64,000 nt of DNA from Synechococcus sp. NB0720_010 (GTDB lineage: Bacteria; Cyanobacteriota; Cyanobacteriia; PCC-6307; Cyanobiaceae), in NCBI RefSeq assembly GCF_023078835.1, contig NZ_CP090898.1:310001-374000 (forward strand). The letters are read 5' to 3'. Below are positions 29,415 through 32,437 of the stretch, in pieces. Below the pieces are notes generated by a model. That model made no database searches and had not been told where the DNA came from. It was given only the letters and a program-made list of their open reading frames with translations. Made by a program: the position numbers and the translations under genes. Position 1 is the stretch's first letter. The number at the start of each line of letters is the position of its first letter.

Positions 29415-30113
29415 CTAGTTCTGGAGCCCCTCGATCAGGCGATCAACGGCCTTGAGTCCTCGAGCGACCCCGCCGCCTTCACCCTCAAGGGCGTCGGCCA
29501 TCTGCTCAGCATCTGGCTTGAGCTCGAAGTCCTTGACGAAGCGATAGCCGTCGGGGTCTCGCCGGTAGAGCTGCCAGTCCTGGGGATAGGCACGTCTGAG
29601 TGCGCCCTCCCCGGTGGGGATGAGGGCATAGGCGGACTGCCAGATGGCGAGGAAGCCCTTGCGACGCTCGCGCGCCACAGTCCCAATCCCTACCGCGGCA
29701 TCCTCCAATTTTCCGTTCAGCAGAACAACACTGCCGCGGTGCTGAGCGCAGACGGCTTCAACGTCCTCGTAGTCCGCCGGGGTCGGGGCTACCAGGACCA
29801 GAAGCCCATCGCTACCGCCGTCGGCCTGCTGGAGTCGCTTGATTCCGCTGAGTTCGGTGATGCTGCCCGCCTGCTCCGCTGCGTCCCGCTTGGCCAGGGC
29901 CGCTGCACCGGCGTCAGGGAAGACCAAACGGGCCTCAGCATGGGCAGGCAAAAGCGCTGCCAACAGGCGCAGCGAGACCGGCAGGATGCGCAGTCCTTCA
30001 AACCGAAATTCTGCGGTCCAGAAGCCTTTGGCTTGGCTGGCAAGGGCAGCGGCAATCGCTTCAACAGCTTCAGCTTCAGCGCGTCGCAGATCAGCGGGGA
30101 GCATCCGGGCCAT
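29415..30113 (-). CDS. DUF1995 family protein
   Basis: A 232-residue soluble protein of the DUF1995 family. The family occurs in cyanobacteria and plastids and includes the plant protein LPA3, linked to photosystem II assembly. Visible marks are MLPADLRRAEAEAVEAIAAA, VLVAPTPADYEDVEAVC and the C-terminal WQLYRRDPDGYRFVKDF. The cyanobacterial function is not established; a photosynthesis-assembly role is inference from the family. It starts 15 bases after the cysteine desulfurase gene. Confidence 0.82.
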   Translation of the reverse strand: MARMLPADLRRAEAEAVEAIAAALASQAKGFWTAEFRFEGLRILPVSLRLLAALLPAHAEARLVFPDAGAAALAKRDAAEQAGSITELSGIKRLQQADGGSDGLLVLVAPTPADYEDVEAVCAQHRGSVVLLNGKLEDAAVGIGTVARERRKGFLAIWQSAYALIPTGEGALRRAYPQDWQLYRRDPDGYRFVKDFELKPDAEQMADALEGEGGGVARGLKAVDRLIEGLQN

Positions 30114-30128
30114 ATCGTTCGGTCGACC

Positions 30129-31316
30129 CTAATCAGCCATCACTGCGGCGATGGCCTCCCGCAAAGCGATCGGGACAGGCGCAAGGTCAGCGTCGCGATG
30201 CCAGGACCCCAAACTGAGGCGCAGGCCGCTGGAGCTGCGCTCTGGTGCGATTCCCATGGCTTCGAGGATCGGACTGCCGGCCGCCTTGGAGCTGCTGCAG
30301 GCCGAGCCGCTGCTGATCCCGTAGCCCAGACGTGACATGGCCCGAACGACGGAGCGTCCGGAGAGGGGCACGCCCTGCGGCGACGCGACCAACAAGCTGA
30401 TGTGATTCGACAGGCGCTGTTCAGGATCCTGAAGGGGATCAGGACCGGTCAGCTCCACTCCGGGCAGCTGGAGCAAACCCGTCAGCAGTGCGTCACGCCT
30501 TTCAATCAGCGGATCTTTCGTCCCTTGAAAGCGCTGGATGTTGAGCAACTCCAGAGCCTTGGCAAAGCCCGCAATCAAGGGCACCGGTTCGGTCCCAGCA
30601 CGGATCCCCTGCTCCTGGCCGCCACCGGACTGGATTGGGCGGACTGGCACCTGATCCCGAATCAAGAGGGCGCCAACACCCCGGGGTCCACTGAGCTTGT
30701 GACTGGCGACGCTGAGTAAATCAATGGGCAGCGCATCGAAATCAATCGGCCGTTGCGCAGCCACCTGCACAGCATCCACATGCAGCAGCACCCCTGCTTG
30801 ACGGCAGAGCCGACCGACCAGGTCCATGGGCTGGAGGGTGCCGACCTCGCTCTGACCCCAGATCAACGACACCAAACGGGTCGGTGGCGCGAGCTGCGAC
30901 TCCAGGACCGCAAGATCAATGAAGCCCTGGCGATCCACCGGGATGCGCTCGAGCTGCCAACCCTTCCGTTGCAGCTGCAGCGCCGCCGCTTCGGTGGCGG
31001 GGTGCTCAACCGCAGAGAGCAAGAGCCGAGGTGCTGACCCTTGCCCGTCCCAGAGCTCAGCAGCGGCACCGAGTAGGGCGAGATGAATTGATTCGGAACC
31101 GCCGGAGGTAAAGATCAGGTCCCCACCGCAGCCCAGCTGAGCAGCGATCTGTTGGCGGCTGCGCTCGAGCTGTTCGGCGGCGGCCAGGCCGAAGGCATGC
31201 AGGCTGGATGGATTCGCCCAGGCCTCGCGATCCACCCGTTGGATCTCCGCCTGAACCTCTGGCGCCAACGGGGTGGTCGCGGCGCAATCGAGGTATTGGC
31301 GAAGATCCGAAGTCAT
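30129..31316 (-). CDS. Cysteine desulfurase, NifS/IscS-like
   Basis: A 395-residue class V PLP enzyme of the NifS/IscS branch, which mobilises sulfur from cysteine for iron-sulfur clusters. The start LDCAATTPLAPEV, the PLP lysine in LLSVASHKLSGPRGVGALLI, IQSGGGQEQGIRAGTEPVP and the persulfide cysteine loop (SSGSACSSSKAAG) are all present. It is distinct from SufS. Whether it serves FeS clusters or tRNA thiolation cannot be told. It overlaps the end of dapF by 4 bases. Confidence 0.9.
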   Translation of the reverse strand: MTSDLRQYLDCAATTPLAPEVQAEIQRVDREAWANPSSLHAFGLAAAEQLERSRQQIAAQLGCGGDLIFTSGGSESIHLALLGAAAELWDGQGSAPRLLLSAVEHPATEAAALQLQRKGWQLERIPVDRQGFIDLAVLESQLAPPTRLVSLIWGQSEVGTLQPMDLVGRLCRQAGVLLHVDAVQVAAQRPIDFDALPIDLLSVASHKLSGPRGVGALLIRDQVPVRPIQSGGGQEQGIRAGTEPVPLIAGFAKALELLNIQRFQGTKDPLIERRDALLTGLLQLPGVELTGPDPLQDPEQRLSNHISLLVASPQGVPLSGRSVVRAMSRLGYGISSGSACSSSKAAGSPILEAMGIAPERSSSGLRLSLGSWHRDADLAPVPIALREAIAAVMAD

Positions 31317-32437
31317 GGTTCGCGCTCGAAGCGAGCGCGGGTCCGAGACTCCAGGGAATTGGTGGCCAGGGTCACCAGATCATCCAGGGAGGTGCTGTTG
31401 AGCAGTGCCGCGACCTTGGCTCGGGCGGCTTCGCTGGGGCAATTGTCCGGGCGGATACAGCCGTTAGCGCAGACCGTCGCGCAGTCGATCTGATCGCCTG
31501 AATCGGCGGGGGGTTGGGACTGCTCCACGGCAGGGGGCACCATCTCCGTCTCTGCGGCCTGCCCACGCGCCGCGGCTACGGACTCTGCATCCGGGATGGA
31601 ACCGTCGAACACATGCTCCGCCGGGCCGTCCATAAAGACCTTGCCGTTCATGGCGTCCCAGTGAATCTGCAGGGGGCCGCCCGGGAGGTCGATACGGGCT
31701 GTGCGCTCGGAGAGCCCCAGGCGATGGCAGGCCACCAGGGTGGCGCAGGCTCCGGTGCCGCAAGCGAGGGTTGGGCCTGCCCCGCGTTCCCAGACCCGCA
31801 TCACCAGATGGGAGGGCGAGAGCACCTCGACGAAATGGACATTGGTTTTCGCCGGGAACGCGGGGTGGATCTCTAGCTGACTGCCAAAACGCTCCAAGTC
31901 GATTTCATCGACGGAATCCACAGGCACCACCACGTGGGGGTTGCCCATTCCGGCAGCGGCCACGGCAAACCGCTCGCCATCAATCTCCAGTTCGCCGCTG
32001 GGAAGCCCCGCCTCGCCGACCTCCAGGGTCGTTGGGATCTCGCTTGGCGTCAGGAAGGGCGCGCCCATGTCGACGCGAATCGTGCCGTCGGGGAGAAGCT
32101 CCGGAACGATCCGGCCCGCCAGGGTGTCGACCTGCCAGGTGCGGCCGGGGCCGTCCCCATCGCAATCGGCCAGGAATCGGGCCAGGCAGCGGATGCCGTT
32201 GCCGCACATCTCGGGTTCGGTGCCATCGGCGTTGAAGATGCGCATCCGCAATTCCCCTCCGCCGTTGGGTGGCAGGGCCAGGATCACGCCGTCGCCTCCC
32301 ACCCCAAAGCGGCGATCGCAGAGCTGAACCACCAGCTCCGGAGTCAAACCAAAGAGGAAGTCCGTATCGCCCGATTGACGCCCATCGAGCATCAAAAAGT
32401 CGTTACCGAGACCTTGGTACTTGCTGAATTGGAACAC
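31313..32437 (-). CDS. dapF: Diaminopimelate epimerase with Cys-rich C-terminal extension
   Basis: A 374-residue protein. Residues 1-281 are a complete DapF, which interconverts LL- and meso-diaminopimelate for lysine and peptidoglycan. Both catalytic cysteines are there: Cys78 in EPEMCGNGIRC and Cys226 in LACGTGACATLVACH. Residues 282-374 are extra: a Pro/Glu/Gln-rich linker, then four close cysteines (CATVCANGCIRPDNC, residues 319-333) and a charged helical end (TSLDDLVTLATNSLESRTRA). Normal DapF has about 275-285 residues. The tail could be a fused small protein or a metal-binding module. The gene is divergent from the Hfq-like gene (44 bases) and heads a minus-strand group. Confidence 0.93.
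   Translation of the reverse strand: MFQFSKYQGLGNDFLMLDGRQSGDTDFLFGLTPELVVQLCDRRFGVGGDGVILALPPNGGGELRMRIFNADGTEPEMCGNGIRCLARFLADCDGDGPGRTWQVDTLAGRIVPELLPDGTIRVDMGAPFLTPSEIPTTLEVGEAGLPSGELEIDGERFAVAAAGMGNPHVVVPVDSVDEIDLERFGSQLEIHPAFPAKTNVHFVEVLSPSHLVMRVWERGAGPTLACGTGACATLVACHRLGLSERTARIDLPGGPLQIHWDAMNGKVFMDGPAEHVFDGSIPDAESVAAARGQAAETEMVPPAVEQSQPPADSGDQIDCATVCANGCIRPDNCPSEAARAKVAALLNSTSLDDLVTLATNSLESRTRARFEREP

What the first reader, a model, noticed from the sequence alone, without database searches (positions are those of the whole stretch)
31313..31594. DapF carries an unexplained 93-residue Cys-rich C-terminal module
The enzyme core is complete by about residue 281, yet the frame continues for 93 residues with a flexible linker, four cysteines within 15 residues (319, 323, 327, 333) and a charged helical end. 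It looks like a separate small domain, perhaps metal binding or a redox sensor, attached to a cell-wall precursor enzyme whose own catalysis depends on two cysteines. The next gene, overlapping by 4 bases, is a cysteine desulfurase, which adds a possible sulfur/iron-sulfur context.
Basis: partly seen in the sequence, partly recalled or inferred. Interest (0 to 1): 0.6.

Follow-up and report, generated by a model that had tools for sequence, protein, structure and literature searches.

The report
Orphan cyanobacterial Cys4 protein fused to DapF
The unexplained tail on this cell-wall and lysine enzyme is a real, conserved domain that exists as its own small unstudied protein in many cyanobacteria, so the fusion gives a first clue to what that protein works with.

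Summary
DapF (31313-32437, minus strand) has a complete core at residues 3-281 plus 93 further residues with Cys 319, 323, 327 and 333. The tail is no frameshift: it is fused to DapF in 24 of 25 genomes of the genus. Its last ~57 residues evolve almost as slowly as the catalytic core, while the 35-residue linker evolves fast.

The same module occurs as a free protein of roughly 65-85 aa across cyanobacteria. A profile matches 305 of 388 genomes of the class, 265 of them outside the two families where it is fused; Pfam, NCBIfam and PDB gave no credible match. A second family (f10) is fused too. Some relatives lose the Cys4 part but keep the helical hairpin; others lose the whole module.

Most likely it is a Cys4 (metal or thiol) knuckle on a helical docking hairpin that once acted beside DapF and now acts in cis. 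Fusion and family are shown; Cys4 chemistry and docking are inferred. The desulfurase neighbour is weak evidence for an iron-sulfur role.

The parts
31313..32437 (-). dapF, diaminopimelate epimerase with fused C-terminal module, 374 aa
   Evidence: the ORF listing; TIGR00652 and PF01678 matches
31595..32437 (-). DapF catalytic core, residues 1-281, with the catalytic-type cysteines Cys78 (32204-32206) and Cys226 (31760-31762)
   Evidence: TIGR00652 residues 3-281; both Cys invariant in alignment A3; AF2 model matches cyanobacterial DapF 9mro over 286 alignment columns, 51% identity
31490..31594 (-). linker, residues 282-316, variable in length and sequence
   Evidence: dN 0.19-0.57 in 9 pairs; pLDDT below 50 at residues 304-314
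31316..31489 (-). Cys4 plus helical hairpin module, residues 317-374
   Evidence: fused in 24 of 25 genus genomes; helices 319-325, 334-348, 351-371 in the AF2 model; profile A1 matches 305 of 388 class genomes, free or fused
31439..31483 (-). the four cysteine codons: C319 (31481-31483), C323 (31469-31471), C327 (31457-31459), C333 (31439-31441), spacing C-x3-C-x3-C-x5-C
   Evidence: sequence; in the census, 62 of 78 tails counted as module-bearing have the full motif, 16 have one Cys or none, none has two or three
30129..31316 (-). NifS/IscS-type cysteine desulfurase, 395 aa, starts inside the dapF stop (4-base overlap)
   Evidence: PF00266; NCBIfam scores below cutoffs
29415..30113 (-). DUF1995 protein downstream, third gene of the row
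   Evidence: PF09353 E 3.6e-40; also beside nifS in 4 of 4 f1, 2 of 2 f11, 1 of 4 f10 and 4 of 20 other genomes (f12 twice, f35, f40)

Best explanation
The tail is a translocated and fused copy of an apparently cyanobacteria-specific free protein of about 65-85 aa: a C-x3-C-x3-C-x5-C knuckle followed by a two-helix hairpin. SHOWN: (1) the free form is widespread in the window's class; (2) in family f11 the free gene lies between dapF and nifS, in frame with dapF and separated by one stop codon; (3) in the window's family (f1) and in family f10 it is joined to the DapF C-terminus by a linker; (4) the module is under strong purifying selection and the linker is not; (5) the four cysteines are present as a set or all but lost, and some lineages keep the hairpin without them. 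INFERRED: the four cysteines form one site (a structural or regulatory metal, most likely Zn, or a thiol/Fe-S site), and the hairpin is a docking surface. Before fusion the small protein acted together with DapF, or with a partner of DapF; fusion makes this permanent. The most likely job is recruiting or regulating the epimerase, not catalysis. The redox and Fe-S rivals below are narrower versions of the same picture, so the odds overlap.
For: Free form: profile A1 matches 305 of 388 class genomes at E 0.01, of which by my count of the rows 36 are f1, 4 are f10 and 265 others; outside f1 and f10 every match among the listed rows lies in a frame of 67-177 aa, but the list of matches was cut. 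All 16 free proteins read from whole genomes carry the motif. Juxtaposed form: in G320 and G339 (both f11 genomes held) dapF is 285 aa, then a stop, then the module gene in the same frame, then nifS. Fused form: 24 of 25 genus genomes and 4 of 6 genomes of f10's order, the two misses being 62% and 68% complete. One copy: the window's genome has no second hit better than E 0.05. Selection. Cysteines as a set. Hairpin kept without the set, e.g. L048-L055 and L058-L062. Structure: three helices in the free protein, block-mean pLDDT 84-97 across the hairpin; in the fusion a separate module after a low-confidence linker.
Against: Outside f1, f10 and f11 the free gene is not next to dapF: dapF lay in 1 of 96 stretches, about 5 kb away, and no other neighbour is broadly conserved. 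So the link to DapF rests on the f1/f10/f11 arrangement, which may be a single event. Juxtaposition plus loss of one stop codon could be an accident later kept. The tails that lost the cysteine set show that the site is not needed in every lineage, and five small-genome DapFs of the same family lack the module altogether. No structure relative was found, so metal binding and docking have no homology support. The models came without coordinates or pair errors, so cysteine geometry and packing on the core could not be judged; pTM of the module model is only 0.47.
Confidence: 0.6

Rival explanations
1. Redox switch: the Cys4 module senses or transfers thiol/disulfide state and protects or re-reduces the two catalytic cysteines of DapF (Cys78/Cys226), in the manner of a small CP12-like redox protein acting in cis.
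For: C. glutamicum DapF is reversibly inactivated by a disulfide between its two catalytic cysteines (PMC5296763, abstract and passages seen). Four cysteines present as a set next to such an enzyme.
Against: Lineages with none or one of the module cysteines keep the hairpin, so redox cannot be the only function. One full-text search for the enzyme with thioredoxin and cyanobacteria listed 11 papers, none with a title or abstract start on cyanobacterial DapF as a thioredoxin target (listing only).
Confidence: 0.22
2. Iron-sulfur or sulfur-handling module tied to the adjacent cysteine desulfurase: the module receives sulfur or holds an Fe-S cluster.
For: Four Cys; dapF-module-nifS order in f1, f11 and part of f10.
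Against: No cysteine desulfurase found beside the free gene in 96 loci. dapF-nifS adjacency persists in small-genome relatives that have no module. No match to an Fe-S family in Pfam for six free proteins.
Confidence: 0.1
3. Neutral passenger: the fusion is a by-product of gene juxtaposition; the module does its own unrelated job while physically attached to DapF.
For: In f11 a single stop codon separates the two genes; free genes elsewhere are not linked to dapF.
Against: In the 137 of 299 genomes of the order that match, each genome's best match lies in a long frame (269-961 aa), as expected of a kept fusion (only part of these were read as DapF), and a second family is fused too.
Confidence: 0.25
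4. Frameshift or sequencing artefact that extends the frame.
For: None found.
Against: Fused in 24 of 25 genus genomes, with low dN and a conserved motif.
Confidence: 0.01

Closest known systems
Diaminopimelate epimerase, DapF (TIGR00652, PF01678)
   Same: Complete core with both catalytic-type cysteines; best structure match is the cyanobacterial (Anabaena) enzyme 9mro, 51% identity.
   Different: The Anabaena enzyme ends at about residue 280 (PMC12039745, passages seen); here a 93-residue linker plus module follows.
Free Cys4 small protein of cyanobacteria (no curated family found)
   Same: Same C-x3-C-x3-C-x5-C spacing and hairpin; 30-44% identity by blastp to 16 free proteins (alignment).
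   Different: Most free proteins read add a C-terminal PPKWVFPE-like stretch that f1 fusions lack and f10 fusions keep.
Small Cys-pair proteins of cyanobacteria such as CP12 and NsiR6
   Same: Small, cyanobacterial, two pairs of conserved cysteines, redox or metal role shown or proposed (PMC5126843, passages seen).
   Different: The passages give a CPVC pair (C-x2-C) for NsiR6; no sequence relation was tested here. Analogy only.
C. glutamicum DapF redox switch
   Same: Enzyme whose catalytic cysteines form an inactivating disulfide (PMC5296763, abstract and passages seen).
   Different: The switch there lies inside the core; no extra module is described in the passages seen.

Membership tests
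DapF (TIGR00652) | score above the NCBIfam equivalog cutoff and full-length core | tested here: met
   269.5 bits against cutoff 114.65, residues 3-281
DapF (TIGR00652) | two catalytic cysteines in CGNG and CGTG contexts | tested here: met
   C78 and C226 invariant in 62 aligned fusions; Anabaena equivalents Cys75 and Cys224 (PMC12039745 passages)
DapF (TIGR00652) | epimerase activity | not testable with these tools
   none
Free cyanobacterial Cys4 hairpin protein | C-x3-C-x3-C-x5-C followed by the S/T-x-L-D hairpin | tested here: met
   alignments A2 and A4 (A4 rows were picked with Cys patterns) and blastp of the window protein to 16 free proteins, E 3e-11 to 8e-8
Free cyanobacterial Cys4 hairpin protein | C-terminal PKW-[VI]-x-P-like segment (usual, not universal: 2 of the 16 free proteins, L102 and L104, lack it) | tested here: not met
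   absent from the window and the f1 tails printed, present in the other free proteins and in the 4 f10 fusions
Any curated Pfam, NCBIfam or PHROG family for the module | match under the curated cutoff or E 0.001 | tested here: not met
Zinc or iron-sulfur protein | bound metal | not testable with these tools
   four cysteines that behave as a set only
NifS/IscS cysteine desulfurase (neighbour) | equivalog cutoff | tested here: not met
   TIGR03402 278 bits against 530.75; clear PF00266 match

The most novel reading that the evidence does not exclude
The free small protein is a previously undescribed, cyanobacteria-specific regulator of diaminopimelate epimerase. Through a Cys4 redox or metal site it ties supply of the peptidoglycan and lysine precursor to cell redox or metal state, and it was fused to its target at least once (perhaps twice).
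Probability: 0.22. Interest if true: 0.75.

Novelty: new variant of a known kind. Interest (0 to 1): 0.5.

Why it matters
A small protein carried by most of the cyanobacterial genomes sampled has no family entry or known function that I could find. The fusion, and the adjacent in-frame arrangement in the S. elongatus-like family, name a testable partner: DapF, which makes the meso-diaminopimelate used for cell wall and lysine. If the small protein controls DapF, it would be a new regulatory point in that pathway in phototrophs.

Tried and rejected
Frameshift or sequencing error: rejected by 24 of 25 genus genomes and by dN. Iron-sulfur context from the desulfurase: 0 of 96 free-module loci had that gene in the stretch held. 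Gene neighbours of the free gene as a clue to function: no broad conservation; MnmE and QueG genes recur only in some loci. Weak extra hits to the tail in L027-L030: shadows antisense to other genes; similar weak second hits in G087, G117, G119 and G172 were not read. Structure relatives: Foldseek gave one match at E 4 and the VIA second look none; PDB sequence profiles gave only ribosomal proteins at E 0.05 or worse. Mobile carriage: no match in plasmids (query: one free protein), phages (query: the window module) or viral contigs (query: profile A2). PADLOC was not searched. Ssr2998 as the free protein in Synechocystis: tried from memory; the titles listed and recall point to PetP of cytochrome b6f, so dropped (listing only). 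Literature: the searches (20 of 229 papers listed) listed no title or abstract start about a fused cyanobacterial DapF or this small protein; only passages of three papers were opened, and the library lacks most subscription papers.

One or two fusions: the LeuS tree puts f1 with f11 (support 98.7) and rejects f1+f10+f11 as one clade (p-AU 3.4e-5) and f1+f10 (4e-57) (one partial row, G385, was dropped). The NifS tree does not reject f1+f10+f11 (0.31). On the DapF core the trees held to f1+f10 or f1+f10+f11 even scored better than the free short search (p-AU 0.857 and 0.853); six long-branched rows were dropped there (G325, G025, G032, G026, G056, G027) and the f1+f11 test did not finish. The full 66-row DapF tree drew f10 apart from f1, with unsettled support. 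Left open.

Full report
Observation. The dapF gene (31313-32437, minus strand) encodes 374 residues. TIGR00652 covers residues 3-281 (E 3e-80), and neither Pfam nor NCBIfam matches residues 282-374. Cysteines 319, 323, 327 and 333 are confirmed. The cysteine desulfurase gene (30129-31316) begins inside the dapF stop with a 4-base overlap, and a DUF1995 gene follows.

The tail is real. Searching the 93 residues in the genus gave a hit in 25 of 25 genomes at E 0.01. In 24 the hit is the end of a DapF frame (L015 and L017 are partial frames); in the 25th (G023) it is antisense to another gene. Twenty-three of the 24 tails have all four cysteines; L026 has one. In the order, 137 of 299 genomes, in 18 of 35 genera, match at E 0.001. 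In nine pairwise comparisons among nine sequences, the module has dN 0.034-0.116, the linker 0.188-0.565 and the core 0.006-0.091; in eight pairs module/core lies between 0.65 and 2.6, in the closest pair (L006/L008) it is about 8. So the module is constrained nearly as strongly as the enzyme, and the linker is a spacer.

The module also exists alone. A profile of the last 57 residues matched 305 of 388 genomes of the class at E 0.01. By my count of the rows, 36 of these are in family f1 (the window's), 4 in f10 and 265 elsewhere. Outside f1 and f10 every match among the listed rows lies in a short frame (67-177 aa); the list of matches was cut before the end. Sixteen free proteins read from whole genomes all share C-x3-C-x3-C-x5-C and the hairpin, and 14 of the 16 end in a PPKWVFPE-like stretch. 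Together with 80 named loci (Microcoleus, Planktothrix, Arthrospira, Picosynechococcus and others; the best 80 of 252 hits) they are 65-75 aa after trimming; the named loci were found with a pattern that already demands two of the cysteines. In a phylum sample 104 of 291 genomes matched profile A2; all but one weak hit (G807) belong to the same class. The window's genome has no second copy better than E 0.05.

How it got there. In both genomes of family f11 (G320, G339), dapF encodes 285 residues, then a stop, then the free module gene in the same frame (its ATG comes four codons after the stop codon), then nifS. The G339 contig is 2,696,255 bases, which I recall as the chromosome length of Synechococcus elongatus PCC 6301. 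Losing one stop codon would fuse the two genes; gaining one would split them. In f10, four of six genomes carry a DapF fusion that still has the free protein's C-terminal PKWVIP segment; the two without are 62% and 68% complete. Of 58 dapF loci read, a nifS-like gene lay within about 1.5 kb in 8 of 8 f1, 2 of 4 f10, 1 of 1 f11 and 0 of 45 others. Of the other two f10 genomes, G319 has it about 1.5 kb away and G365 on another contig. nifS next to DUF1995 is older: it is also seen in 4 of 20 genomes outside these families, from f12, f35 and f40. Whether f1 and f10 fused once or twice is open: LeuS separates f10 from f1+f11 (p-AU 3.4e-5), while NifS (0.31) and DapF (0.85-0.86) do not reject one group.

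How it decays. In a census of 95 distinct DapF ends from loci on hand (low scorers were fetched on purpose and not every locus passed the script's pattern, so these are not frequencies), 62 carried the four-cysteine motif, 16 were counted as carrying the hairpin with one cysteine or none, 17 had no module, and none carried two or three cysteines. Fifteen of the 16 keep a recognisable hairpin; the sixteenth, L212 (G029), has only a degenerate trace. L213 (G051) has a stub. Five small-genome members of the family (G025, G026, G027, G032, G056; 1.7-1.9 Mb, Prochlorococcus-like by my inference) end at the core. The cysteines therefore come and go as a set, and the hairpin has a value of its own.

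Structure. AF2 on 115 aligned modules gives three helices; block-mean pLDDT is 84-97 across the hairpin and 64-84 across the Cys region, and pTM is 0.47. On the fused protein it gives a good core, a stretch under pLDDT 50 at 304-314, and a three-helix module with block means of 52-89. Foldseek finds DapF structures for the core (best 9mro) and nothing for the module. I had no coordinates, so cysteine geometry and packing on the core were not judged.

Mechanism. I favour a docking or regulatory module: a Cys4 site stabilising or switching a helical hairpin that binds DapF or a DapF partner, first in trans and then in cis. The redox variant is attractive because DapF of C. glutamicum is shut off by a disulfide between its catalytic cysteines (PMC5296763, abstract and passages), but hairpins without the cysteine set show that redox cannot be the whole function. 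The iron-sulfur reading rests only on the nifS neighbour, which was not found in any of the 96 free-module loci examined.

Known or new. No credible match to a curated family, solved structure, phage, plasmid or viral contig was found for the module, and the paper searches (listings) showed nothing on it. The enzyme is ordinary DapF. The accessory domain and its free relative are an undescribed family as far as these searches reach.

Noticed in passing
L216, L269 and L270 (f11), dapF to nifS: dapF and the module gene are in one frame separated by a single stop codon in both f11 genomes; stop readthrough would make the fusion protein.
   Followed up: partly
window 29415-31316: A nifS-like gene beside a DUF1995 gene is an older pair, also seen in families f12, f35, f40 and one f10 genome.
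   Followed up: partly
L212 (G029): DapF tail with a degenerate trace of the hairpin and no cysteine motif; looks like a module in decay.
   Followed up: no
L176 (JAAUTE010000022.1): A free module on a contig labelled as a Chloroflexaceae MAG; perhaps a misbinned cyanobacterial contig.
   Followed up: no
G365 (family f10): A second, weaker match to profile A1 in a genome with a fused copy; not seen at E 0.001 with profile A2.
   Followed up: no
G320 and G339 (f11), leuS: leuS lies a few kb from dapF in both f11 genomes, as it does next to dapF in the window: wider shared gene order.
   Followed up: no
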